From IMG/VR virus record IMGVR_UViG_3300008266_001135, positions 1-23,287 of that record: DNA of 23,287 bases; one strand, given 5' to 3'. The position numbers and the translations under genes are program-made. This stretch comes from a virus. Under the pieces are notes generated by a model. It was not told the origin of the DNA, did no database searches, and saw only the letters and a program-made list of their open reading frames with translations. Each line of letters starts with the position of its first letter. The stretch's first letter is position 1. Below are positions 1,285-22,401 of this stretch, piece by piece.

Positions 1285-1941
1285 TTAATCCTCTTTATCC
1301 TTGTCTTTTTTCTTAACTGAAGGTTTAGATTTTAATTTATTGGCATATTGTGTTGAATCTAATTTATTCATTGAGATAATATTATAGGGTGGTTTACACC
1401 CAGCACTATAACGAGAAGCAGCATCTAAAGAAAGTATTAACATATTTATTATATCATCTACATCCCATTCAGGGTCTTTAATTTCTAATTCTCTAGTTTG
1501 GGTAAATAATGAACCTAATGCTAAATCACTACCACATCCAACAGATAAATAAGGATCATACACTTCACCTACTTGAAAATCATCTTCAACGTAATATAAT
1601 TGGCCTTTATAACCGACTAAAAATGTTCCACCAATTTCATCACCTTCTTCTCTTTTTTGCAAATATCCACCTTCTTTAAATGCCTCTCTCAATGCATCAA
1701 TAAAATCAGTAATCATATAATCATAATCTGATTGGTCTGATTTTTGTTTCCAAGGTTTAAATTTACTAGACATTAGAATTTGTCCCATTCTAAAACTGGA
1801 GGTAAATCCAAATATAAATGGTCCGTTTTGAAATACTTTGGGGTCTTTTCTTATTTGTTGGGAAAAATTATCGTCTGTACCAGCACTATCACCAGCAAGG
1901 TAAACAGTGTCTTTATGAAGGAATCCTACTATACAAGTCAT
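1285..1941 (-). CDS. Proteasome/HslV-like Ntn-hydrolase (putative phage peptidase)
   Basis: This 218-residue protein begins MTCIVGF, with a VYLAGDSAG motif at residues 13-21. In T1-family Ntn peptidases (HslV, proteasome beta) the free N-terminal Thr1 is the nucleophile, with Asp17 and Lys33 assisting. If Met1 is removed, T2 becomes Thr1 and D18 falls exactly at the Asp17 position. K35, in DPKVF, matches the Lys that precedes Val in HslV. The following FIFGFTSS corresponds to the family's IAGFAGG-type strand and turn. Later, SVGCGSDLALGSL (residues about 131-143) resembles the conserved glycine-rich G-x-G-x-x-x-A segment. The fold call is therefore well supported, but substrate and activity are not. 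No ATPase partner (HslU-like) is in the window. The gene lies among late genes and cargo genes. It lacks the N-terminal cargo peptide, as a catalytic N-terminal Thr would require. Confidence 0.75.
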   Translation of the reverse strand: MTCIVGFLHKDTVYLAGDSAGTDDNFSQQIRKDPKVFQNGPFIFGFTSSFRMGQILMSSKFKPWKQKSDQSDYDYMITDFIDALREAFKEGGYLQKREEGDEIGGTFLVGYKGQLYYVEDDFQVGEVYDPYLSVGCGSDLALGSLFTQTRELEIKDPEWDVDDIINMLILSLDAASRYSAGCKPPYNIISMNKLDSTQYANKLKSKPSVKKKDKDKED

Positions 1942-2525: not shown

Positions 2526-4607
2526 TTATTTAACTTTGATAAATAAAGAAATATGACCTTTTTCCCCATACTCCATATATCCATTAGCTTTATATCCAGC
2601 TTTTTTAAGTTCTTCAACAGCTTTATCTATACGAGGTTGCCATTTTTTTCTATAAGGAGCTGCATATTGTTCAATTTGACTAGATGACATCCAATCCTCT
2701 CCATCTTCTCCACCACCATGGTCTGTTCTAGGACCTCTATCATTAGTTTGACCCCAATATTCACCATTTCCTTCATCATTCCATTTTACACCAGAAATAT
2801 TACTTTTTATAATATCTAGAGGGGTTTGTTTAGGAGTTGGTTTGGGTGCTTCTTTTTCTTTAGGGGTTTGTGATGATAATTTATTTAATTTATCTTCAAT
2901 ATATTTTTGATCAAAAGTATACCATCCACCCGGTCCTGGTGAGTCTGATGTTTTATGATTCCAAACATTACCTAGTTTATTATCATCATTCCCATGTGAA
3001 TTATGGTAAAAATAATCAGTATTAGGTTTAGTTGTTTTATATTCAAATGCTGTATATCCTATTCCTATTCCTCTATCTGTACCTAAATCCTCAGGTTCTT
3101 GAATTTTATAATACCAACTACCATCACTTTCACTTCTTTGTTTTTTTATAATATATCCTTTAGATGCAAGTGAATTTATCTTTTTTTCAATATAAGGACC
3201 ATCAAATCGTTTACCTGATAGGGTTGGGGATGGTTTTTCTTTAGGGGTAGATTTTGAATTTATTTCACCACTTACATTAGCTAACCATCCTTTTTCAATC
3301 ATTTTATTAATTGCAGAATTGATTTGTGGTTGTGATTTACCTAATTTTTTAGCTAATTCTCCTCTTGAAATACCATTTTCATCAGATTCATTATCTATAA
3401 TTGATAAAACATCTTGAACAAATTTTTTAGTCTTTGTATTAGTTAAATCAGATTTTTGAATTGGGGTTGTACCTCTTATTATATTAATAGAAGTACGAGC
3501 CATTTCGTCAATTTCTTCTACACCTTCATTTAATTTATCACCTTCTTTGAATGGTTTAATTTCAAAATCGTTTACATTATAATCTCCTGAGATGTTCTCT
3601 GCTAATCCTACAATTTCACTATCTGAAATTTCTAAACCATTATCTAATGTGTAAACCATATAACCGCCAACTTTAGCTTTACTGGCTTTAACTATACGAC
3701 CTGTTTTAACATTTTTAGATTTTTCAACTTTAGAAGTAGCTAACATACCTGAAGCTGGGAGGTTTACTTGGTATTTAACAGTATCTCCTTTTTTGTATTT
3801 GGTTGAATTGTTATTTTCATCAATTTCCTCAACACCTTCATTTAATTTATTATATAAATCTTCTAATTTACTAAATGCTAATTCATAATCAGATGTACTT
3901 AATGATTGTCCTGTTTCTTCATAATCACTAAATTCATCTTCCCAAATATCATATAAATCATCTCTAAAACTATCAGAATTAATATCATCTTCATCTACAA
4001 GACCTCTATTAATAGCAGTCATAGACATCCAATCTATAAAAGCATCAAATGGATCTTCCATAGTTATTTCTTTTAATCCTGCTAGTCTTTTCAATCTAGT
4101 AATTTCTGTCAATGGTAATTCCTCTTCAGGTGTTTCCTCAGCAGGGGTTTCTTCAGCTGGGGTCTCTTCGGTTGATGTTTCGGCTGGGGTTTCTTCGGTT
4201 GGTGTTTCGGCTGAGGTTTCTTCAGCTGCTTTTTCAGCATCTGCTTTTTCCTTTTCTTGATCAGCTTTAGACATTAGTTTACCTTTATTAAGAAGAACAT
4301 TTAATTGTTTTTGAGCAGATTGTTTTACATCTGCTCCTCCATCTAAATAAAATCTTTCTCCACCTATAATAGCAATAAAATCAATTTTAGTATATTCCAT
4401 CTTAAATTTCTGACCATTTGCTAATTCAATTTCAAATGTTGATGGAGTTGATACTAATAAATTAATTGAATTAATAACCTCAGGATTAGTAATCTTTAGG
4501 TTACCAACTAATGATTTTTTCAATGCTGGGTATTTTTGGAGCATTATTTCCACATTACGTGGTTTAGTTGGGGTTAATACCTCTTTAAGTAATTTGGTAA
4601 TTTTCAT
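2526..4607 (-). CDS. 693-residue modular protein with repeated protease-site motifs (putative cargo polyprotein)
   Basis: The modules in order are as follows. Residues 1-11 are a cargo-type N-terminus (MKITKLLKEV, site L7-K8-E9). A small beta-rich domain spans about 20-105. An acidic Glu/Thr/Pro/Ala linker spans 115-165 (repeated PAEET). A second targeting-like peptide, LTEITRLKRLAGLKE, spans 166-180. A highly acidic helical module ends at the motif KLNEGVEEIDE (254-264). An SH3/KOW-like beta module (GDTVKYQV to GLEISDSEIVGL, about 273-335) is followed by a second exact KLNEGVEEIDE (358-368). A winged-helix-like module (GISRGELAKKLGKSQPQIN, 412-430) and Pro/Lys linkers lead to a C-terminal alpha/beta domain (about 600-693). 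The L-x-E/I-x-E tripeptides sit at the module borders, where a gp21-like prohead protease could cut. The predicted role is packaged polyprotein or scaffold-like cargo; individual functions are unknown. A terminator follows. Confidence 0.75.
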   Translation of the reverse strand: MKITKLLKEVLTPTKPRNVEIMLQKYPALKKSLVGNLKITNPEVINSINLLVSTPSTFEIELANGQKFKMEYTKIDFIAIIGGERFYLDGGADVKQSAQKQLNVLLNKGKLMSKADQEKEKADAEKAAEETSAETPTEETPAETSTEETPAEETPAEETPEEELPLTEITRLKRLAGLKEITMEDPFDAFIDWMSMTAINRGLVDEDDINSDSFRDDLYDIWEDEFSDYEETGQSLSTSDYELAFSKLEDLYNKLNEGVEEIDENNNSTKYKKGDTVKYQVNLPASGMLATSKVEKSKNVKTGRIVKASKAKVGGYMVYTLDNGLEISDSEIVGLAENISGDYNVNDFEIKPFKEGDKLNEGVEEIDEMARTSINIIRGTTPIQKSDLTNTKTKKFVQDVLSIIDNESDENGISRGELAKKLGKSQPQINSAINKMIEKGWLANVSGEINSKSTPKEKPSPTLSGKRFDGPYIEKKINSLASKGYIIKKQRSESDGSWYYKIQEPEDLGTDRGIGIGYTAFEYKTTKPNTDYFYHNSHGNDDNKLGNVWNHKTSDSPGPGGWYTFDQKYIEDKLNKLSSQTPKEKEAPKPTPKQTPLDIIKSNISGVKWNDEGNGEYWGQTNDRGPRTDHGGGEDGEDWMSSSQIEQYAAPYRKKWQPRIDKAVEELKKAGYKANGYMEYGEKGHISLFIKVK
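3504..3848 (-). repeat. Two in-frame copies of KLNEGVEEIDE bounding a module
   Basis: The 11-residue motif occurs at 3816-3848 and 3504-3536, exactly 312 bases (104 codons) apart. It brackets the SH3/KOW-like module of the 693-residue protein. Each copy holds one L-N-E and one I-D-E tripeptide, both fitting an (L/I)-x-E protease site. Confidence 0.7.
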
Positions 4608-4631: not shown

Positions 4632-4640
4632 AATAAATAT
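4632..4640 (-). promoter_or_regulatory. Putative phage late promoter motif
   Basis: The minus strand reads AATATTTATTATAAATCC, 25 bases upstream of the ATG at 4607. It touches the stop codon of the preceding zinc-ribbon gene. Confidence 0.4.
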
Positions 4641-5254
4641 TATTCGGGTTTGGTTTCTTCATTTTCCTTATTATCATCCAACCAAGTTTTTCGGATTTTT
4701 TCAAGTTCAGGTAATACTTCGTTAAATATTTTATCTTTAACTTTATTTGATTTACCCCAATCTTCTTTGCTCCCATCCTCAGTAATAAATGATTCAGTAT
4801 CATTGTTACTAGCTTCATCTATTAACCATTCTTTATACATATCCAAACCACCCAATACGTTATTTTTTAACATATTATTTTTATATTCTTCATATTTACC
4901 CTCAATTTTTAATTTGGTTTCCATTTCGGTAACACAATTTAAACATTTTGAATGTACACGATACATCTTTTCATCAACTTGACTTTTCATTGGTTTACTA
5001 CAATTGGGGCAAGTTAACGGGATTAAATATTGTTTTTTGAACTGTTCTAATTTAGATATACTCTGCTTAACCCCATTTTTGATTGTCCAAGTTTTACCGT
5101 TTTCTTCCCAGATTTCTCCTTCAGAATGTTCAACTATATCTTTTTCATAACCAACCTGAACTCGAGTACCAGCATTGTAATCTTTTTTAATTAAGTTACG
5201 AATACGAGATAGGTCTCGTTCATTAAATTCTTTTTGTAATAAGGATTCTCCCAT
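4640..5254 (-). CDS. Zinc-ribbon protein of unknown function
   Basis: I place the start at ATG 5254-5252, giving 204 residues. The frame is open further upstream to 5341, but those codons run through a terminator hairpin and a promoter motif and encode an unlikely leader. Residues 82-107 hold a CX2C-X18-CX2C zinc ribbon: C82-P-N-C85 and C104-L-N-C107, with H101 nearby. Before it is a SEGEIWEENGKTWTIKNGVKQ segment (45-65) that looks like a beta-hairpin. After it come charged helices with an acidic, Glu/Asn-rich end. There is no targeting peptide, unlike the neighbouring genes. The CPNC / CLNC type of ribbon binds zinc for folding, DNA or protein contact. No specific function can be named. It follows the ADP-ribosyltransferase gene and precedes the 693-residue gene. 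Confidence 0.75.
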   Translation of the reverse strand: MGESLLQKEFNERDLSRIRNLIKKDYNAGTRVQVGYEKDIVEHSEGEIWEENGKTWTIKNGVKQSISKLEQFKKQYLIPLTCPNCSKPMKSQVDEKMYRVHSKCLNCVTEMETKLKIEGKYEEYKNNMLKNNVLGGLDMYKEWLIDEASNNDTESFITEDGSKEDWGKSNKVKDKIFNEVLPELEKIRKTWLDDNKENEETKPE

Positions 5255-5268
5255 AAAATAACATTTTA

Positions 5269-5279
5269 TATAAATATAG
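5269..5279 (-). promoter_or_regulatory. Putative phage late promoter motif
   Basis: The minus strand reads CTATATTTATATAAAATG between the T-tract of the terminator at 5288-5309 and the ATG at 5254. It lies about 15-17 bases from the start. Confidence 0.45.
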
Positions 5280-5287
5280 AAAAATAA

Positions 5288-5309
5288 AGACCCCCAATAT
5301 TGAGGGTCT
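5288..5309 (-). terminator. Intrinsic terminator after the ADP-ribosyltransferase gene
   Basis: AGACCC (5288-5293) pairs with GGGTCT (5304-5309). The intervening CAATATTG is self-complementary and extends the stem across a C/A mismatch. The minus-strand tail is TTTATTTTTC, directly followed by the promoter-like motif of the next gene. Confidence 0.8.
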
Positions 5310-5312
5310 GGG

Positions 5313-5334
5313 TTCAACGGTTTTTCACGTTGAA
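5313..5334 (-). other. Second hairpin just before the terminator
   Basis: TTCAACG (5313-5319) pairs with CGTTGAA (5328-5334), a 7-bp stem with an 8-base loop. It is three bases from the terminator stem, so on the transcript the two hairpins follow the stop at 5350 back to back. It has no T-tract of its own. It may stabilise the 3' end of the mRNA or serve as a recognition or processing element. Confidence 0.5.
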
Positions 5335-5349
5335 GGGGCATGTATTATT

Positions 5350-6102
5350 TTATGATTCTTCTATTTGACTAAATATTTTCTTTATTATATAATCATCAGT
5401 AACATCTTTTCCTTTTGACTTTAAATCAGAAGCAATAATTTTCCACTCATTTGTTTTCCATATAATGTATTCTTCATCAATAATCGCATCCCATCTTATT
5501 AAACAATATGTTTTTAATGGGTCTTTTGAAATTCTAACAGTTTCATCTTCTTCCACTCCCATAAATCTATCACTTAAATTATTCAATGCTTCTGGGTTGA
5601 AAATAAAATTACTGTCTACTTTACTTACCATTATAAAACCTGAATCTTTAGAAAAATCCTGGGCTGTTTTGAAATTTAAGGACCATGATTGTGCAGGTAA
5701 ATGAGACTTATAAGATAAAAATGGTTTTTTAGAATATAAATACCAAATACCTCCTATTTTAGTTTTAGTAAAATTATCTTTTAATGATATGTTTCTTAAT
5801 TGAGATGCTTTTCTTTGATCAAAATCTGCTCCTCTATAACATGTTTTACCTACTGGTGCTTTTAATATTTCTGGGTGTTTTTTAGATAATGCTTTAAAAT
5901 CCTCAAAATTATTTTTCAAGTATGATGCTGTTTTAGAAGCATTGTTACCTTCAACCCATTGTAAAAGCATTTTTAGTGCGTTTTCTTCCCAATCAGTATT
6001 GGGTTCTTCAGGTTTACTTTGGAAATTAGCTAATTCTTTATCACTTCCAAATAAAACTTTACCTACATCAGGTATCTCATTTAAAAGTTGGGAGAGTTTC
6101 AT
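5350..6102 (-). CDS. Predicted mono-ADP-ribosyltransferase with capsid-targeting-like N-terminus (Alt-like cargo)
   Basis: This 250-residue protein carries the R-S-E signature of ADP-ribosyltransferases. TCYRGADF at 87-94 has R90. QSWSLNFKTAQDFS at 138-151 gives the S-x-S motif S139-W140-S141 and the typical A-x-x-F that follows. VEEDETVRIS at 183-192 gives E185-D186-E187 as the E-x-E catalytic motif. The N-terminus MKLSQLLNEIPDVG has the short cargo peptide with L7-N8-E9 as the candidate cleavage site. In T4, Alt is an ADP-ribosyltransferase packaged in the head, injected with the DNA, and used to modify host RNA polymerase and other proteins. By analogy this protein would act in the host at the start of infection. 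The motif pattern is seen directly; target, activity and packaging are inferred. The start follows the stop of the 94-residue gene by 2 bases, and a terminator follows. Confidence 0.7.
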   Translation of the reverse strand: MKLSQLLNEIPDVGKVLFGSDKELANFQSKPEEPNTDWEENALKMLLQWVEGNNASKTASYLKNNFEDFKALSKKHPEILKAPVGKTCYRGADFDQRKASQLRNISLKDNFTKTKIGGIWYLYSKKPFLSYKSHLPAQSWSLNFKTAQDFSKDSGFIMVSKVDSNFIFNPEALNNLSDRFMGVEEDETVRISKDPLKTYCLIRWDAIIDEEYIIWKTNEWKIIASDLKSKGKDVTDDYIIKKIFSQIEES

Positions 6103-6104
6103 AA

Positions 6105-6389
6105 TTAAAGTTCACTAGGGCGGACATCAGTATTTAACTCACTTTTAGGCACACCTACAAACATAAAAAGATCTGTTGGACCCGCATATGCTTTGAATAT
6201 ATATTCTTTAGAATTTATATCAAACCCTACATATTCAAATTCATCATTAAATTCATCCATACCTGGATCGTAAACTTGATAATATTCTCCTAGTTTAAGG
6301 AATTTTTTATCAAATGATTCATTTTCATTAATCAATCCTGCTAATTTCTTCAGGCGCTTAATATCTTTGTTTAATTTTTCTTTTTTCAT
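6105..6389 (-). CDS. Small unknown protein with capsid-targeting-like N-terminus
   Basis: This 94-residue protein begins with the targeting-like peptide DIKRLKKLAGLINENES (residues 9-25, candidate site I20-N21-E22). That is the same flavour as the start of the 275-residue protein. The remaining ~70 residues form an acidic, aromatic, beta-rich small domain (LGEYYQVYDPGMDEF, then FEYVGFDINSKEYIFKAY and LFMFVGVPKSEL) with no recognised family. Its ATG overlaps the stop of the holin gene by ATGA (6386-6389), so translation is probably coupled. The ADP-ribosyltransferase gene starts 2 bases past its stop. The pair could be co-packaged, or this could be a partner or inhibitor of the enzyme; both are speculation. 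Confidence 0.75.
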   Translation of the reverse strand: MKKEKLNKDIKRLKKLAGLINENESFDKKFLKLGEYYQVYDPGMDEFNDEFEYVGFDINSKEYIFKAYAGPTDLFMFVGVPKSELNTDVRPSEL

Positions 6390-6823
6390 TTTTTGTTATT
6401 TTTATCCTTTAATAAACCTCTAAATCTAGAATCTAAATAATCTTTAATTAATGACATTAAATTCTTTCCGGTTGATTTTTCAAAGTTTTCAGCAATACTT
6501 GTAAATTCAGTCATAGCTAGAAATGCTAATGATATTTTTAAGAAAGGTATTTGGTTAAATAAATAAAGCTCACATAAATGAGCTGCTATAACTAATAACT
6601 GATAAACTAACATTTTTGTAAGGGTAGCTCCCATTTTTTTGCTTGTAATAGGATTTCCCTGTTTTTTAGCTGCTATTAATCCTGTAATAAAATCTATTGT
6701 AATTAAAACTCCTACTGCTAACATTACTGGATAAAGTGGTAGGAAGAAAATTGCTAGAGTAGCAAGAATTTTATTTATCATTTTATGTAGTGGGGTGTAT
6801 TGATTAATAAAAATAGCCTTCAT
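6386..6823 (-). CDS. Phage holin (Phage_holin_4 / toxin-secretion lysis holin family)
   Basis: This 145-residue protein has four hydrophobic segments at roughly 17-33, 34-52, 68-86 and 93-110. The pattern matches the holin_4 family: a membrane segment ending in IDFITGLIAAKK (42-53), then the polar SKKMGATLTKMLVYQ (61-75), then a late helix with MTEFTSIAENFEKSTGKN (104-121) and a basic tail. Such holins oligomerise in the inner membrane and release the endolysin at lysis time. It is not next to the endolysin, which lies about 1.5 kb upstream past the tube and endonuclease genes. The start may be Met1 or Met15 (MINKIL), as no ribosome binding site decides. The gene is coupled to the next one by ATGA. 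Confidence 0.75.
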   Translation of the reverse strand: MKAIFINQYTPLHKMINKILATLAIFFLPLYPVMLAVGVLITIDFITGLIAAKKQGNPITSKKMGATLTKMLVYQLLVIAAHLCELYLFNQIPFLKISLAFLAMTEFTSIAENFEKSTGKNLMSLIKDYLDSRFRGLLKDKNNKK

Positions 6824-14128: not shown

Positions 14129-14428
14129 TTATTTTAAAGATTGTACTTTTTCTTTAGCAATTATTTTATCATCGAGAGATTTTAAATCACGTTTAATAGG
14201 ATCTAATTTAACCTTAGTTAAAGTACCTACTATTTTTCCAGTTGCAGGATAAAATTCACTTACTTTATCTTTATTAGTTACTAAACTACCTCCATCTACA
14301 ACTAAACGAATTTTCTTTAAACCTAAAGATTTATTGGCTCGTTTATTTAATCCGCTTTCATCCTCATTTTCTTTAAGGGTTTTACGAATTTCTTCTCTAA
14401 TAATATGTCTTAATTCTGACTTTTTCAT
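14129..14428 (-). CDS. Small protein with capsid-targeting-like N-terminus, unknown function
   Basis: I place the start at ATG 14428-14426, giving 99 residues. The frame extends 10 codons upstream, but the internal Met begins the shared peptide exactly (MKKSELRHIIREEI, then KTLKENE). This matches the next gene's MKKSELKQLIKEII in register. Candidate protease site: L18-K19-E20. The body is basic and beta-rich (GLKKIRLVVDGGSLV, SEFYPATGKIVGTLTKVKLD) with a Lys-rich C-terminus. It is unrelated in sequence to its neighbours. The stop lies 3 bases from the gp15-like gene. Predicted internal head cargo, possibly DNA-binding given its charge; that function is a guess. Confidence 0.7.
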   Translation of the reverse strand: MKKSELRHIIREEIRKTLKENEDESGLNKRANKSLGLKKIRLVVDGGSLVTNKDKVSEFYPATGKIVGTLTKVKLDPIKRDLKSLDDKIIAKEKVQSLK

Positions 14429-14442
14429 ATTGTTTATTTTAT

Positions 14443-14452
14443 AATAAATATT
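14443..14452 (-). promoter_or_regulatory. Putative late promoter motif
   Basis: The minus strand reads AATATTTATTATAAAATA about 15 bases before the internal start at 14428. It supports that start over the longer frame, whose ATG (14458) lies upstream of the motif. Confidence 0.4.
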
Positions 14453-14754
14453 TACCAATCTTTACAAGCTTGGTATCTTGGAGTTCCTGGTTTAGCTGAG
14501 GAACATTTATGTCTTGCTCTAAATGCTTTTTTACGTTTTGTATCTCCGCTTTTACCAGTTACTTTAACACCTTTTTGACCCCAATGTATTCTTTTATATC
14601 CATCTCCATCTTTAACACATTTCATCCATTTTTTACCTTTTCTGTCTGAAGAGGTTTTACCTGTTGTTTTAGTACAACGAGCTGCTTCTTGTAAAAGTTT
14701 ATTATCTTCTAAGATAATTTCTTTTATTAATTGTTTAAGTTCTGATTTTTTCAT
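14452..14754 (-). CDS. Basic Cys-containing small protein with capsid-targeting-like N-terminus
   Basis: This 100-residue protein begins MKKSELKQLIKEII followed by LLQEAARC, with L21-Q22-E23 before Ala as the clearest cleavage candidate. The rest is strongly basic (Lys, Arg, Gly) with four Cys: C27, C46, C84 and C97. They are embedded in KKWMKCVKDGDGYKR and FRARHKCSSAKPGTPRYQACKDW-type segments (about 78-100), the latter looking like a compact knuckle motif. A small basic protein with a removable head-targeting peptide resembles T4's basic internal proteins, packaged with the DNA. It could bind DNA, chelate zinc through the four Cys, or do both. Family not identified. It is the middle of three consecutive cargo-type genes between neck and tail genes. 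Confidence 0.75.
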   Translation of the reverse strand: MKKSELKQLIKEIILEDNKLLQEAARCTKTTGKTSSDRKGKKWMKCVKDGDGYKRIHWGQKGVKVTGKSGDTKRKKAFRARHKCSSAKPGTPRYQACKDW

Positions 14755-14757
14755 AAT

Positions 14758-15222
14758 TTACTTTTCGATATCAATTTTACTTAAATTTTTAGGACTAATA
14801 TATTTCGGGAAAAGTTGATTATATATTTTTTTCCTTTTCTCATCAGTTCCTTTTATATATATTTTATTAATCTCCTCTCTTTCTCCATATTCATTAATGA
14901 AATCATCTATTATTTTACTAATAGTTTGGATTACACTAATTACTTTATTTTCATTTGTTTTTTCTAAATACTTAGGATCTATTTCTTCTTTAGTTAATTT
15001 TTTTGTTTTAAATAATAACTCAAAATATCCTGGGGAGTAATCAAATGAGTTAAGGGTTACAATGTATAAATTATTAGGAGTTTTAAATTCATATTCTGCT
15101 GATATTAGAGAATCATCTTCTTCATCCCATGATTCATCAACATTATAGAATTTAAATATTTCTTCCTTTAATATTTTATTAATTTCTTCTCTAATAATTT
15201 GTTTGAATTCTAATTTTTTCAT
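14758..15222 (-). CDS. Small protein with capsid-targeting-like N-terminus, unknown function
   Basis: This 154-residue protein begins MKKLEFKQIIREEI followed by NKILKEEIF, with L18-K19-E20 as the candidate site. The body is acidic at first (DESWDEEDDSL) and then has a beta-sheet segment (AEYEFKTPNNLYIVTLNSFD, YFELLFKTK). A helix follows (VISVIQTISKIIDDFINEYG, 95-114), then INKIYIKG and KIYNQLFPKYISP. The alternating beta/alpha layout with a YNQLFPKY ending suggests a small alpha/beta fold, possibly an acetyltransferase-like or phage-specific fold, but no catalytic motif is clear. The start lies one base past the stop of the 163-residue neck gene, so translation is probably coupled. Confidence 0.75.
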   Translation of the reverse strand: MKKLEFKQIIREEINKILKEEIFKFYNVDESWDEEDDSLISAEYEFKTPNNLYIVTLNSFDYSPGYFELLFKTKKLTKEEIDPKYLEKTNENKVISVIQTISKIIDDFINEYGEREEINKIYIKGTDEKRKKIYNQLFPKYISPKNLSKIDIEK

Positions 15223-16959: not shown

Positions 16960-19900
16960 TTATAAAACAAAGGTAAATGAACTTTCGCTTAAAGTTACAT
17001 CTGTCGGAAGTGTAGCCCAATTCAAGGTGTTTGAAAGAACCCCAGCGTAAGAATAGACAGTCTTTCCTAAAGATGAATCTATGTCTGTAGCATTGACGAA
17101 TCCTAAATCTACTGTTACTCCTGGTTGAACAGTTAATATAGCCTGAGAACCTGGTGTTGTTGATCTAAATAAAACTCTATTTGCATCTGTAGCGGTAGTA
17201 CAAGTAAAAGCAGTTGTAATTGTATTAGTTATTCCTGAAACCAATCGTTGAGTTAATCCTGCTGCTGAGACTATTAATGTTCCTACTGTAAATCCAGAAG
17301 TTGCAAATGTAACACTACCTCCTAATGTCATTGTTCCTGTAGCAGTTAATAAATTACTTAATGTAATAGTTATTGTTCCTGAGGTTGTTATATTATTCCA
17401 ACTCATTCCATTAGTTGCTAATGTTGTGGTAAATGTTATAATATTTAAAGTAGAGCCAGTCGTTATAACAGTTCCTGCAGTATAAGTTAAAGTACCTGTA
17501 TTGTAGTACACATTTCCTGAAATAGTAATCGTACCCGCAGTGTTAATAGTCAAGTTATTTCTAAGTATTGAAGTTGATACATGTGACCATGTGCCTGTTC
17601 CATTGAGTATAATTGTACTAGTACCACTAACAATAAATCCTGCGGTATTTACAGTTAAATTTCCTCCTACTAAAATAGAATTACTATTTATTGTTATTGT
17701 ACTACTACTTGTTAATAATAAGTTATTAGATACAGTTAAATTACTACTTAGTGTAATTGTAGTTGTTCCAGTTGTACCAAAAGTTGTAACATTATTCCAA
17801 TTAATACCATTTGTATTAAGAGTTGTTGATGTGGGATTAGCACCGCTTCCGATAAATAGTGTGCTTCCTGTAGTAGTAACTGTCCCTGCAGTATAAGTTA
17901 AAGTGTTATCATAATAATATACATTACCAGAAATAGTAATTGTTCCTGCTGTGTTAATAGTTAGATTATTTTTAATAGGCCCTAAAAAAGTAGAAGACCA
18001 AGTACCTGTTCCTGTTAATACTAAGTTAGTTGTTCCGCTTAGTCCTTGATTTATATTATTATTACCATTAATTGTAAAATTTCCTGTTATTGATAATTGG
18101 TTCCCATTAAGCTGTGTTGAATGATCAGAAGTTAAGTTTATACATGTTATATTTTGTGGAACATTAAAGATTGTCTGACCTCCTCCTGTATTAACTAAAT
18201 TAATATTTGCATTTGTGGTAATTAAATTGTTACCTCCTAATGTAAAACTTAAAGTTCCTGCACTTACATTTAAAGTACCAGTTAAAGTCAAATCACTTGA
18301 AAGAGTAATTGTAGTAGTTCCTGAGGTTGTTATATTATTCCAAGTTATACCATTAGTATTTAATGTTGTATTTGTTCCAATAGTTAAAGTTGAACCAGTA
18401 GTTGTAACCCCTGCCGCAGCAGTATAGGTAAGAGTTCCTGTGTTATAATATACAGTTCCACTTACTGTAATAGTTCCAACTGTATTAATAGTTAAATTGT
18501 TTCTTATTTGTCCTGTACTCGTATGACTCCAAGTACCTGTTCCACCAAGAACAATAGTAGTTGTTCCTGCTAAAACTGCTGTACCTGTATGAGTAATATT
18601 ACCATTAACTGTAAGAGTATTACCATTTAAATTAAAAGTTATTGAACCTCCTCCTCCGAGAGCTAATGTTAAATTCCCATCAGCATTCATATTATCAGAA
18701 AGAGTAAAAGTAACACCAGATGCAGAATTTGAAAAAGTTACATTATTCCAATTAATACCATTAGTAGTAAGTGTAGAAGTAGCTGTAATAGTAAAAGTTG
18801 AACCAGTTGTTACTACTGTACCTGCAGTATAAGTAAATGTTCCACCATAATAAACAGTTCCACTTATTGTGATCGTACCAGAAGTATTTATTGTAAGATT
18901 AGTTCTTAACTCACCAGTAGACCCATGACTCCAAGTTCCTGTCCCATCTAAGATAATACTTGCTGTACCCGTTGTATTACCAATACTTGTAATTGATAGG
19001 TTACCTCCTACTGTTATTGTATTATTAGTTAAAACTACATTTCCAGCAAGAGTAAAATTTCCATTAATATCTAAATTATTTGACAAAGTTATTGTACCAT
19101 TGGTGGATATAGAGATATTATTCCAACTCATCCCATTAGTTGCTAATGTTGTGGATTGCGCAATAATTACAGTAGAGCCAGTCGTTGTAACAGTTCCTGC
19201 AGTATAGGTTAAAGTTCCTGTATCATATCTAACTGTTCCACTAACTGTAATTGTTCCTGCTGTGTTAATTGTTAAATTATTTCTGATAATACCAGACGAT
19301 GAATTTGACCAGATTCCTGTTCCAGTCAATACTAAAGAAGTAGTTCCGCTGCAAATACCAGAACTAGTTGTAGTAAGGTTTCCTGATATGTTTATTGTAT
19401 TAGTATTTAATATTGGATTAGCTCCACTGTTAACAAGTGTAGCATTTGTAACATTTAAAGTGTTAGGAACAGTAGTTGTTCCAGTACCGACCACTAAAGG
19501 ACCAGTTGGGTTGAAGGTAAAGGCTCCAATACTAAAACTTAATGTTGCTGAATGACCTAATGTAAGAGTTCCTGTGATGTTTAGGTTAGAAGAAAGAGTA
19601 ATTGTATAACCTGTTCCTGCAGTTGTAAAATTATTCCAATTTAAAGTGCCTGTATTAAATGTAGTTGCTGCTGCAACTTGTATTGTAGAACCAGTTGTAG
19701 TAACTGTTCCAGTAGTATAGGTTAAAGTACCTGTATCATAGTAAACAGTCCCACTAATTGTAATTGTACCAGCAGTGTTAATAGTCAAGTTATTTCTAAG
19801 TATACCAGTAGAAGTATGTGACCAAGTCCCAGTACCATCTAATACTATATTAGTTGTACCTGATGTCGTTGCAGTAGTGGTTTGGGTTAAATTTCCACTT

Positions 19901-21234
19901 ACATTTATTGTGTTACTTGTTAGTGTCATGGCAGTAGTACCGCCCAAAGATAGAGCACCACCTACGTTTAAATTACTTGATAGAGTAAAAGTTTGTGATG
20001 CGCCAGAAAGTGTAACATTATTCCAACTCATTCCGCTTGTTGCAAATGTAGTACTTGCTGCACAGTTTAATGTAGATCCTGTAACTGTAACTGTACCTGC
20101 AGTGTAAGTAAGGATTCCTGTATTATATCTAACAGTTCCACTAACTGTAATTGTACCCGCAGTATTTATTGTTAAGTTGTTTCTAATAATACCAGTATTT
20201 GAATTTGACCAAGTGCCTGTACCGTTCAATATTAAGGAAGTAGTTCCACTACAAATACCAGAGCTAGTTGTAGTAAGGTTTCCTGATATGTTTATCGTGT
20301 TAGTATTTAGTATAGGACTTGTTGATGAATTGACAAGAGTAGCATTTGTAACACTTAAAGTATTGGGAATTGTGGTTGTACCTTGTGTTACGATTAAAGG
20401 ACCAGTAGGATTAAAAGAAAATGCTCCAATACTAAAACTTAAAGTTCCCGTATGATTTAGTGTAAGTGTTCCTGTTATATTTAAGTTTGATGAAAGTGTT
20501 ATTGTATATGTTGATCCTGCGGTTGTAAAATTATTCCAATTTAAAGTGCCTGTATTAAATGTAGTTGCTGCTGCAACTTGTATTGTAGATCCTGTAACTG
20601 TTACTGTTCCAGTAGTATATGTAAATATTCCTGTATCATAGTAAACAGTTCCACTTATTGTAAGTGTTCCCGCAGTATTAACAGTAGTATTATTTCTAAT
20701 AACACCAGTAGATGAATTACTCCATGTTCCTGTACCACCAAAAACAATCGCAGTAGTTCCTGAATATATACCAGCAGTTGTTTGTGTTAAGTTACCATTG
20801 ATATTTAAGGTATTATTTGTAAGAGTAGTAGTTCCTGTTCCTTGAAATGTTATAGCTCCAGTTACAGTCCAGTTATCTGCTAATGTATATGTTACACCTG
20901 CTCCCCCAAATGTCAATGTCCTTGACCAAGTAACACCGCCTGAAGTTAGAGTTGTCGCACCATTTAATAAAATACCATTTGCTCCTGCTTGTGTATATCC
21001 TCCTGTGCCAAGATTAAGTACACCATTTGTTGTTATATTTGCATTGAATGTAATAGTACCAACATAGTTAGTAAAGTTTACTCCTACTAAACCTGCTGAT
21101 GCAACATTTACAGTAAGATTTCCTGATGTAGCAGTAAAGGCAATATCATCCCCAGCAACAGGCACAACGCCACCTACCCAAGTAGTTGTTGCATTCCAGT
21201 TACCACCTGTATTCGATACCGTTCTTGTTGCCAT
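16960..21234 (-). CDS. Giant repetitive beta-solenoid adhesin / tail fibre (1424 residues)
   Basis: The protein is dominated by Thr, Gly, Asn and Ser with very few charged residues. The N-terminal cap is TVSNTGGNWNATTTWVGGVVP, then AGDDIAF, the start seen in secreted beta-helix adhesins. Eight solenoid repeats follow. Each begins GTGTWS, continues with RNNLTINTAGTITISG and VYYDTGTLTYTAGTV, then TTGSTL, SWNNIT, TITLSSNLN and GNLT. The anchors are spaced 171, 129, 171, 126, 134, 177 and 137 residues. The last ~100 residues form a C-terminal cap (TTAFTC, DANRVLFRST, FVNATDIDSSLGKTVYSY) shared with the 384-residue neighbour. There is no signal peptide, so virion location is likely, probably as a distal fibre or surface-binding appendage. 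Repeat number probably sets its length. The neck gene follows. Function is inferred. Confidence 0.75.
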   Translation of the reverse strand: MATRTVSNTGGNWNATTTWVGGVVPVAGDDIAFTATSGNLTVNVASAGLVGVNFTNYVGTITFNANITTNGVLNLGTGGYTQAGANGILLNGATTLTSGGVTWSRTLTFGGAGVTYTLADNWTVTGAITFQGTGTTTLTNNTLNINGNLTQTTAGIYSGTTAIVFGGTGTWSNSSTGVIRNNTTVNTAGTLTISGTVYYDTGIFTYTTGTVTVTGSTIQVAAATTFNTGTLNWNNFTTAGSTYTITLSSNLNITGTLTLNHTGTLSFSIGAFSFNPTGPLIVTQGTTTIPNTLSVTNATLVNSSTSPILNTNTINISGNLTTTSSGICSGTTSLILNGTGTWSNSNTGIIRNNLTINTAGTITVSGTVRYNTGILTYTAGTVTVTGSTLNCAASTTFATSGMSWNNVTLSGASQTFTLSSNLNVGGALSLGGTTAMTLTSNTINVSGNLTQTTTATTSGTTNIVLDGTGTWSHTSTGILRNNLTINTAGTITISGTVYYDTGTLTYTTGTVTTTGSTIQVAAATTFNTGTLNWNNFTTAGTGYTITLSSNLNITGTLTLGHSATLSFSIGAFTFNPTGPLVVGTGTTTVPNTLNVTNATLVNSGANPILNTNTINISGNLTTTSSGICSGTTSLVLTGTGIWSNSSSGIIRNNLTINTAGTITVSGTVRYDTGTLTYTAGTVTTTGSTVIIAQSTTLATNGMSWNNISISTNGTITLSNNLDINGNFTLAGNVVLTNNTITVGGNLSITSIGNTTGTASIILDGTGTWSHGSTGELRTNLTINTSGTITISGTVYYGGTFTYTAGTVVTTGSTFTITATSTLTTNGINWNNVTFSNSASGVTFTLSDNMNADGNLTLALGGGGSITFNLNGNTLTVNGNITHTGTAVLAGTTTIVLGGTGTWSHTSTGQIRNNLTINTVGTITVSGTVYYNTGTLTYTAAAGVTTTGSTLTIGTNTTLNTNGITWNNITTSGTTTITLSSDLTLTGTLNVSAGTLSFTLGGNNLITTNANINLVNTGGGQTIFNVPQNITCINLTSDHSTQLNGNQLSITGNFTINGNNNINQGLSGTTNLVLTGTGTWSSTFLGPIKNNLTINTAGTITISGNVYYYDNTLTYTAGTVTTTGSTLFIGSGANPTSTTLNTNGINWNNVTTFGTTGTTTITLSSNLTVSNNLLLTSSSTITINSNSILVGGNLTVNTAGFIVSGTSTIILNGTGTWSHVSTSILRNNLTINTAGTITISGNVYYNTGTLTYTAGTVITTGSTLNIITFTTTLATNGMSWNNITTSGTITITLSNLLTATGTMTLGGSVTFATSGFTVGTLIVSAAGLTQRLVSGITNTITTAFTCTTATDANRVLFRSTTPGSQAILTVQPGVTVDLGFVNATDIDSSLGKTVYSYAGVLSNTLNWATLPTDVTLSESSFTFVL
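18946..20736 (-). repeat. Tandem duplication of a two-repeat, ~900-bp unit in the adhesin gene
   Basis: Copy 1 spans 19837-20736 (900 bp) and copy 2 18946-19836 (891 bp). Each encodes one 171-residue and one 126-129-residue solenoid repeat. The copies share a 68-base identical run (20522-20589 and 19622-19689, exactly 900 apart). Elsewhere the protein is conserved while many third positions differ. Confidence 0.85.
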
Positions 21235-21246
21235 TTATTTTTTTAT

Positions 21247-22401
21247 TTAATTAATAAAAGTAAAAGCTGATGTGTTAATTGTAGGATCAGTAGAAAGTAA
21301 TGACCAATTATCAGTATTGGAAAATACTCCTCTATATGAATATATAGTTCTTCCTAAAGAAGAATTTATGTCTGTTGCATTTACAAATCTAAGATTATTA
21401 GTTGCTCCTGAATTTAAAGTAAGAATTGCTTTACTTGAAGCAATAGTTGATCTGAATAACACTCTTGAGGCATCAGTAGCAGCAGTACAAGTAAATGCAG
21501 TAGTTATAGTATATGTTACTGTTGATACTAATTGATGGGTTAAACTAGCAGTAGATACTAAAGTTCCTACTGAAAAACCAGCAGCCCCAGCAAAAATAAT
21601 TGAATTTGATAATGTCATTGTTCCGTTTGCACTGAGTAAACTATTTAGCGTTTGTGTTCCGGAGGTTATTGTTATATTATTCCATGACATTCCAGAAGTA
21701 TTAAATGTTGTTGCTGCTGCAACATTTAATGTTGAACCAGTTGTAGTGACTGTCCCTGCAGTATAAGTTAATGTACCTGTGTCATATCTAATAGTTGTAC
21801 CTAAAGTTAAAGTGCCGGATGTGTTAATAGTTACATTATTTTGAATTCTACCTATGGTTGTATGTGACCAAGTTCCAGTACCATTAAAATTAAATAATGT
21901 AGTTCCTGATATATTTGATGCTGAACTGTAAGTTAAATTACCGCCAATGTTTAGTGTATTTCCATTTATAGTCGGGCTAAAATTTTCAAAAGTTAAATTT
22001 CCTAAAACTGTTAAGTTATCAGCTAATGTAAAAGTACCATTTGATGCAAATATAATATTTCCACCCCATGAAGAACCATTTGATGTTATAGTTGTAGCCG
22101 TTTGAAATCTTAAGGCAGCAGTACCCGAAACAGTATATGTTCCTGATCCTAAATTTACTGTTCCTGTTGTAGAAAGGTTATTTGTAAAAGCTAATGTACC
22201 TGCAAATCCTGTAAGATTTAAGTTTGCACAAAATGAGGCAACATTAATAGTAGCTGTACCTACTCCACTACTTGCATCAAAAAAAACATTATCTGAAACA
22301 GATGGAACAGATGCTCCTGAAGCACCCCCTGAGGTTACTGACCAGTTTGTTGTTGAGTTATAATTACCTGTGCCTCCTGCTACCCAATATCTATCTGCCA
22401 T
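21247..22401 (-). CDS. Short beta-solenoid adhesin paralogue (384 residues)
   Basis: It has the same architecture as the giant neighbour. The N-cap is YWVAGGTGNYNSTTNWSV, then VPSVSDNVFFDASSG. A single repeat (GTGTWSHTTIGRIQNNVTIN, then RYDTGTLTYTAGTVTTTG and SWNNIT) leads to the C-cap TTAFTCTAATDASRVLFRST, then RFVNATDINSSLGRTIYSY. The caps match those of the 1424-residue protein nearly residue for residue. This suggests gene duplication followed by repeat expansion in the larger copy. The ATG overlaps the TAA of the 84-residue gene by one base (TAATG), so translation is likely coupled. Predicted fibre or adhesin; it may assemble with, or compete with, the long form. Confidence 0.75.
   Translation of the reverse strand: MADRYWVAGGTGNYNSTTNWSVTSGGASGASVPSVSDNVFFDASSGVGTATINVASFCANLNLTGFAGTLAFTNNLSTTGTVNLGSGTYTVSGTAALRFQTATTITSNGSSWGGNIIFASNGTFTLADNLTVLGNLTFENFSPTINGNTLNIGGNLTYSSASNISGTTLFNFNGTGTWSHTTIGRIQNNVTINTSGTLTLGTTIRYDTGTLTYTAGTVTTTGSTLNVAAATTFNTSGMSWNNITITSGTQTLNSLLSANGTMTLSNSIIFAGAAGFSVGTLVSTASLTHQLVSTVTYTITTAFTCTAATDASRVLFRSTIASSKAILTLNSGATNNLRFVNATDINSSLGRTIYSYRGVFSNTDNWSLLSTDPTINTSAFTFIN

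What the first reader, a model, noticed from the sequence alone, without database searches (positions are those of the whole stretch)
5350..6102. Predicted Alt-like ADP-ribosyltransferase carrying a cargo peptide
R90 (CYRG), S139-W140-S141 followed by A-x-x-F, and E185-D-E187 form the complete R-S-E signature in the right order and spacing, on a protein that starts MKLSQLLNE. A packaged ADP-ribosyltransferase would parallel T4 Alt, but the sequence looks different from Alt and ModA and the protein is far smaller than Alt. The combination suggests host takeover by covalent modification at the moment of injection.
Basis: partly seen in the sequence, partly recalled or inferred. Interest (0 to 1): 0.8.

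Follow-up and report, generated by a model that had tools for sequence, protein, structure and literature searches.

The report
Phage ADP-ribosyltransferase with head-packaging tag
A virus of bacteria encodes a small enzyme, too divergent for protein databases to recognise, that very probably attaches ADP-ribose to host molecules; a short N-terminal tag suggests it is packed into the virus head and injected with the DNA, a known phage strategy seen here in a new enzyme family.

Summary
No Pfam, NCBIfam, PHROG or PDB sequence model recognises it. It is nevertheless almost certainly an R-S-E-clade ADP-ribosyltransferase (ART). Motif scans of IMG/VR recovered two divergent homologues (33% and 28% identity) that keep R90, S139, E185 and E187. 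The protein matches a profile of 60 phage ARTs better than T4 ModB does. An AlphaFold model built with ART sequences in the alignment resembles ARTs, but that test is weak and partly circular.

'Alt-like' fits only the delivery idea. The protein is Mod-sized, and a profile of its family shows no detectable similarity to Alt, ModA or ModB.

Packaging is inferred. MKLSQLLNE matches the T4 gp21 cleavage rule (L/I-x-E). One homologue (MKSNKQILKE) keeps it; the other lacks it. Unrelated neighbouring genes carry similar tags. The gene sits in a tight late operon with a holin, between tail and terminase regions.

Best reading: a head-packaged, injected mono-ART, probably arginine-specific. Head-packaged phage ARTs are already known, so this is a new, divergent member of a known kind. 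Catalysis, target and packaging are untested.

The parts
5350..6102 (-). Predicted R-S-E ADP-ribosyltransferase, 250 aa
   Evidence: catalytic motifs conserved in divergent homologues; phage ART profile match 23.1 bits.
6076..6102 (-). N-terminal peptide MKLSQLLNE, predicted capsid-targeting propeptide cleaved after E9 (L7-N8-E9)
   Evidence: Matches the T4 gp21 L/I-x-E rule (PMC9026906); homologue L233 has MKSNKQILKE; similar tags on neighbouring genes. Inferred; cleavage not shown.
5986..6063 (-). Conserved N-terminal segment, residues 14-39 (GKVLFG...EP....E), function unknown
   Evidence: G14, L17-F18-G19, E33-P34, E39 invariant in three homologues, including the one without an LxE tag.
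5833..5835 (-). R90 codon (CYRG), predicted NAD-binding arginine
   Evidence: Invariant in 3 homologues and 22 aligned sequences.
5680..5688 (-). S139-W140-S141, predicted S-x-[ST] motif
   Evidence: S139 invariant in 3 homologues; SWS, SWT or SFS.
5653..5664 (-). A147-x-x-F150 helix after the S motif
   Evidence: F150 invariant and A147 nearly invariant in the ART alignment.
5542..5550 (-). E185-D186-E187, predicted E-x-E catalytic motif
   Evidence: E185 and E187 invariant in 3 homologues.
6105..6389 (-). Small gene just upstream, also tagged (MKKEKLNKDIKRLKKLAGLINE)
   Evidence: ART ATG begins 2 nt after its stop.
6386..6823 (-). Holin (Pfam Phage_holin_4_1), first gene of the tight cluster
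   Evidence: E = 1.7e-13; 4-nt overlap with 6105-6389.
5288..5309 (-). Terminator-like hairpin with T-rich tail just after the ART gene
   Evidence: 9 pairs (5 G-C); consensus match only.
2526..4607 (-). Another tagged protein (MKITKLLKE), 693 aa

Best explanation
The gene encodes a mono-ADP-ribosyltransferase of the R-S-E clade that the phage packs into its head. Made late, with the holin and structural proteins, it would be drawn into the prohead core by its first nine residues. The T4-gp21-type prohead protease would cut after L-N-E9, leaving a ~241-aa enzyme inside the head. It would be ejected with the DNA and use host NAD+ to modify host macromolecules, most likely on arginine since the motif is E-x-E, before any phage gene is expressed. 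Shown here: the sequence, the conservation, the relation to phage ARTs, the LxE peptide and the gene context. Inferred: catalysis, arginine specificity, cleavage, packaging, injection and target.
For: (1) Two divergent homologues, L233 (33%) and L312 (28%), keep Y89-R90-G91, Q138-S139, F150, E185, E187, R190 and I191. L312 was fetched by a P[VI]GK..YRG pattern only, so its QSFS and EEDE motifs are an independent check. (2) Phage ART profile: P0001 23.1 bits and L233 22.4, against 14.3, 6.7 and 3.2 for T4 ModB, ModA and Alt. hhalign score: P0001 38.6, ModB 30.8; highest among ORFs sharing the search pattern by chance 20.8, among non-ART ORFs of 300 random ones 20.3. (3) LxE N-terminus, also in L233; 19 of 48 genes of the two loci have LxE in residues 4-14 against 6.7% of internal windows. 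(4) Late operon with the holin and a terminator-like hairpin after the ART. (5) In the cultivated relative immuto the annotated capsid protein (MELNQLFE) and prohead protease also carry N-terminal LxE sites. (6) A published survey finds phage ARTs enriched in myoviruses and often encoded near head genes (PMC9503650).
Against: No curated family model detects the protein. Masking the motif residues removes the profile signal, and that profile was built from proteins sharing part of the query's pattern. The structure model is middling (pLDDT 67.6, pTM 0.59), its alignment contained ARTs, and fold matches are weak (best Z 5.1, best PDB Foldseek E 6e-3). L312 lacks an LxE N-terminus. The window contains no prohead protease or capsid gene, so cleavage specificity in this phage is unknown.
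Confidence: 0.6

Rival explanations
1. It is an active ART but not a head protein: a late-expressed enzyme acting in the infected cell, as ModA/ModB do after infection, with the LxE-like N-terminus incidental.
For: Size and architecture match ModA/ModB (200 and 207 aa). Homologue L312 has the same domain without an LxE peptide. Most standalone phage ARTs in the motif-scan set have no such peptide.
Against: The peptide type recurs on unrelated neighbours here and in L302 and on the L233 homologue; the gene is coupled to a holin rather than to early genes.
Confidence: 0.27
2. It is a head-packaged ART whose main job is counter-defence or NAD/nucleotide manipulation, not reprogramming of host transcription or translation (a sub-case of the best explanation, differing in target).
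For: T4 IPI, another tagged head protein, is an anti-restriction protein (PMC9026906). In L302 the homologue lies among many tagged genes, one a predicted Tox-ART-HYD1.
Against: No target information exists; the E-x-E motif is typical of protein-arginine ARTs (established knowledge of the R-S-E clade).
Confidence: 0.25
3. It keeps the ART fold and motifs but has no catalytic role, for example as a structural internal head protein.
For: Sequence is highly divergent and no activity is known.
Against: Catalytic R, S and both E are conserved at 28-33% overall identity, which suggests selection for catalysis.
Confidence: 0.06
4. The motif match is coincidental and the protein is not an ART.
For: No curated model and no strong fold match.
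Against: Homologue conservation, profile scores above a true ART (ModB), and the shuffle control.
Confidence: 0.05

Closest known systems
T4 Alt (NP_049811.1)
   Same: R-S-E clade ART with a short N-terminal propeptide; head-packaged and injected in T4 (PMC9026906).
   Different: 682 aa with a large non-catalytic N-terminal part, against 250 aa here; no detectable similarity to the family profile (-1.6 bits).
T4 ModA and ModB
   Same: Small single-domain R-S-E ARTs (200 and 207 aa) with [YW]RG, S motif with A..F, and E-x-E; ModB is the nearest T4 enzyme by ART-profile score.
   Different: Act after infection rather than as head cargo in T4; no LxE N-terminus of this type; no direct profile match (1.2-1.4 bits).
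Phage ARTs with S-W-[ST] motif (e.g. L122, L111 and L183 fragments)
   Same: YRG, SWS/SWT, A..F and E[DE]E in the same order; hhalign of the family profile against them: probability 95%.
   Different: Several lie inside much longer proteins; most standalone ones have no LxE tag.
T4 internal proteins with capsid-targeting sequences (IPI-IPIII)
   Same: Short N-terminal peptide ending in L/I-x-E (10-19 aa in T4; PMC9026906).
   Different: The T4 internal proteins are not ARTs; cleavage is shown there and only predicted here.

Membership tests
R-S-E clade ADP-ribosyltransferases | Aromatic-R-G motif on the first core strand | tested here: met
   Y89-R90-G91 invariant in 3 homologues; modelled strand 87-92.
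R-S-E clade ADP-ribosyltransferases | S-x-[ST] motif followed by A..F helix | tested here: met
   S139-W-S141, A147..F150; SWT and SFS in homologues; strand 138-141 and helix 144-150. L312 lacks the A.
R-S-E clade ADP-ribosyltransferases | E-x-E (or Q-x-E) motif | tested here: met
   E185-D-E187 invariant E positions; followed by modelled strand 188-190.
R-S-E clade ADP-ribosyltransferases | Detected by curated ART models (PF03496, PF01129); a practical, not a biological, criterion | tested here: not met
   No hit; only 2 of the 22 aligned proteins match each of these models, so these models miss many divergent phage ARTs.
R-S-E clade ADP-ribosyltransferases | ART fold | tested here: inconclusive
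   Model pLDDT 67.6; most aligned PDB chains over residues 63-208 are ART-superfamily, but Z is at most 5.1 and the alignment contained ARTs.
R-S-E clade ADP-ribosyltransferases | NAD-dependent transfer activity | not testable with these tools
   Needs an enzyme assay.
T4 Alt family | Sequence similarity and Alt domain architecture | tested here: not met
   250 vs 682 aa; family profile gives Alt -1.6 bits.
T4 Alt family | Carried in the virion and injected | not testable with these tools
   No proteome; only the LxE peptide and gene context suggest it.
T4 ModA/ModB family | Sequence similarity to ModA/ModB | tested here: inconclusive
   Size and motif order match, but the direct profile gives 1.2-1.4 bits.
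Capsid-targeted (CTS) head cargo | N-terminal peptide ending in L/I-x-E within about 20 residues | tested here: met
   MKLSQLLNE, E9; rule from PMC9026906.
Capsid-targeted (CTS) head cargo | Peptide conserved in homologues | tested here: inconclusive
   Present in L233, absent in L312.
Capsid-targeted (CTS) head cargo | Cleaved by the phage prohead protease | not testable with these tools
   Protease gene lies outside this fragment; relatives have an annotated one.

The most novel reading that the evidence does not exclude
This T4-like phage group uses short, swappable L/I-x-E N-terminal tags to load a whole battery of unrelated enzymes, including several distinct ART families, into the head for simultaneous injection; the window's ART is one of them. 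In L302 six of seven consecutive genes start with a near-identical MIKLxxIL.E peptide (the other MIKLELLLKE), one of them a predicted Tox-ART-HYD1 enzyme, a few genes from the ART homologue.
Probability: 0.35. Interest if true: 0.72.

Novelty: new member of a known kind. Interest (0 to 1): 0.45.

Why it matters
Phage-injected ARTs reprogram hosts from the first moment of infection, and T4 ModB can also attach RNA to proteins. A family that no curated model detects suggests that surveys undercount phage ARTs. If the N-terminal tags are real packaging signals, the injected cargo of this phage group could be read straight from sequence and tested by virion proteomics.

Tried and rejected
Pfam, PHROG, NCBIfam and PDB sequence searches of the protein and its homologues: nothing relevant. 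tblastn of phage and plasmid collections: no relative. Two scans of bacterial and archaeal genomes: none. Single-sequence AlphaFold: useless, pLDDT 35.8. The weak match in Microcystis phage Mel-JY01 (W02:141976-142281) lacks the motifs and was rejected. Promoter-like matches are no more frequent than in shuffles and were not used. The diaminopimelate epimerase hits are chance.

Full report
What is there. The window is a 23,287-bp viral record from a T4-like myovirus: tail sheath, tail tube, neck protein and holin are recognisable, and the best sheath matches by coverage include Microcystis phage Mel-JY01 and Flavobacterium phage immuto. One other IMG/VR contig is identical over 14,102 bp and adds no variation.

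Is the signature more than chance? In 100,000 shuffles of the protein a loose R-S-E pattern appeared 4 times and a stricter one never. No other of 2,239 ORFs from related phage loci matched the loose pattern. A DNA pattern for the second and third motifs only (W-S-x5-A-x-x-F, then E-[DE]-E-x-[VIM]) was run over IMG/VR. Most in-frame hits had an aromatic- or K-R-G motif upstream, which the pattern did not contain, while the few hits that looked like chance had none. So the combination marks ARTs.

Homologues. A second scan with S/T variants brought in L233, a 305-aa protein 33% identical. A scan for P[VI]GK..YRG brought in L303/L312, 28% identical, with an in-frame TGA that reads as tryptophan under code 4. 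Invariant in all three: G14, L17-F18-G19, E33-P34, E39, P77, L80, P83, G85-K86, Y89-R90-G91, K108, T112, Q138-S139, F150, F168, L173, E185, E187, R190, I191. L312 was selected on the R motif alone, so its QSFS and EEDE motifs are an independent confirmation. L233 was selected on motifs II and III and is independent only for the R motif and the rest of the alignment.

Relation to other ARTs. A profile of 60 phage ARTs, excluding this family, scores P0001 23.1 bits, L233 22.4, T4 ModB 14.3, L312 8.3, ModA 6.7 and Alt 3.2. By hhalign the single sequence scores 38.6, L312 32.1, ModB 30.8; the best ORF sharing the pattern by chance scores 20.8, and the best non-ART among 300 random ORFs 20.3. The family profile aligns with the ART profile at 95% probability with all three motifs in register. 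Caveat: reference ARTs were chosen with part of the query's own pattern, and masking those residues removes the signal. The reference set is itself ART-like: its alignment with this family finds solved ARTs, the Vis enzyme first, E = 3.9e-5. No curated library recognises the new family; those models also miss most of the reference ARTs.

Structure. A single-sequence model was useless. A model with 22 aligned sequences reached pLDDT 67.6 and pTM 0.59; R90, S139 and E187 fall in or next to strands 87-92, 138-141 and 188-190. Most PDB chains aligned over residues 63-208 belong to the ART superfamily, but Z is at most 5.1 and the best Foldseek E-value is 6e-3. Because ARTs were in the alignment this is partly circular, and I treat the fold as inconclusive. 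Distances between the catalytic residues could not be measured.

Cargo peptide. T4 prohead protease gp21 cuts after L/I-x-E; the Alt propeptide has 7 residues, and those of the internal proteins 10-19 (PMC9026906). MKLSQLLNE ends in such a site. L233 starts MKSNKQILKE and sits among genes starting MIKLKDILKE, MIKLKNILSE, MIKLELLLKE and similar. In the window, unrelated genes start MKITKLLKE, MKKEKLNKDIKRLKKLAGLINE and MKKSELRHIIREEIRKTLKE. Over the coding-strand genes of both loci, 19 of 48 have LxE within residues 4-14 against 6.7% of internal windows, binomial p about 8e-11. In immuto the annotated major capsid protein (MELNQLFE) and prohead protease also have N-terminal LxE sites. Against this, homologue L312 has no such peptide, and the window carries no protease gene.

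Gene context. Holin (6386-6823), a small tagged gene (6105-6389) and the ART form a tight cluster with a 4-nt overlap and a 2-nt gap; a terminator-like hairpin follows the ART at 5309-5288. In relatives sharing the HslV-like peptidase gene, tagged genes and then terminase and portal follow it, so the ART probably lies in the late region between tail and head genes. A survey of viral NAD systems reports ARTs enriched in myoviruses and about 44% of phage ARTs in contexts suggesting head packaging (PMC9503650).

How it most likely works. Late synthesis, recruitment to the prohead core by the N-terminal peptide, removal of that peptide, ejection with the DNA, and NAD-dependent modification of host molecules. 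The E-x-E form suggests arginine acceptors, from general knowledge of the clade. T4 ModB shows that such enzymes may also transfer NAD-capped RNA (PMC10468400), so RNAylation is not excluded. Likelihoods (my judgement): ART about 0.93; packaged, given ART, about 0.68; the full statement about 0.6.

Novelty. Head-packaged ARTs are an established kind. What is new is a divergent family not covered by any library searched here, combining a Mod-sized enzyme with an Alt-style propeptide.

Noticed in passing
L302:9768-13209: Seven consecutive genes start MIKL.....E, one a predicted Tox-ART-HYD1 enzyme (L302:11756-12238, PF15633 E = 2e-5) and three weakly like DUF6934; the ART homologue is a few genes upstream.
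   Followed up: partly
L303 and L312: T4-like phage contigs in which TGA appears to code for tryptophan: many genes are whole only under code 4, and 2 of 5 aligned TGA positions in the neck protein match W in the window.
   Followed up: partly
L091:760-1926 (PP395634.1:22429-23595): Microcystis phage Mel-JY01 'hypothetical protein' WWT39312.1 carries an ADPrib_exo_Tox domain above cut-off, between head genes.
   Followed up: partly
window 4640-5341: The ORF's listed start lies upstream of the terminator-like hairpin; the likely start is the ATG at 5254 (MGESLLQKEF), matching immuto MGESLLKKEF.
   Followed up: partly
window 1285-1941: HslV-family peptidase gene (phrog_1040, E = 3.5e-22), conserved near tagged genes and terminase in relatives L085 and L086.
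   Followed up: no
window 16960-21234: A 1,424-aa highly repetitive T/N/G-rich protein; a shorter similar one lies next to it at 21247-22401.
   Followed up: no
window 14129-15222: Three consecutive small genes start MKKxE...I, each with LxE sites; one weakly matches a minor head/DNA pilot protein family.
   Followed up: no
L111:1947-3488 and L159:7603-9507: Phage proteins with two tandem R-S-E ART domains in one chain.
   Followed up: no
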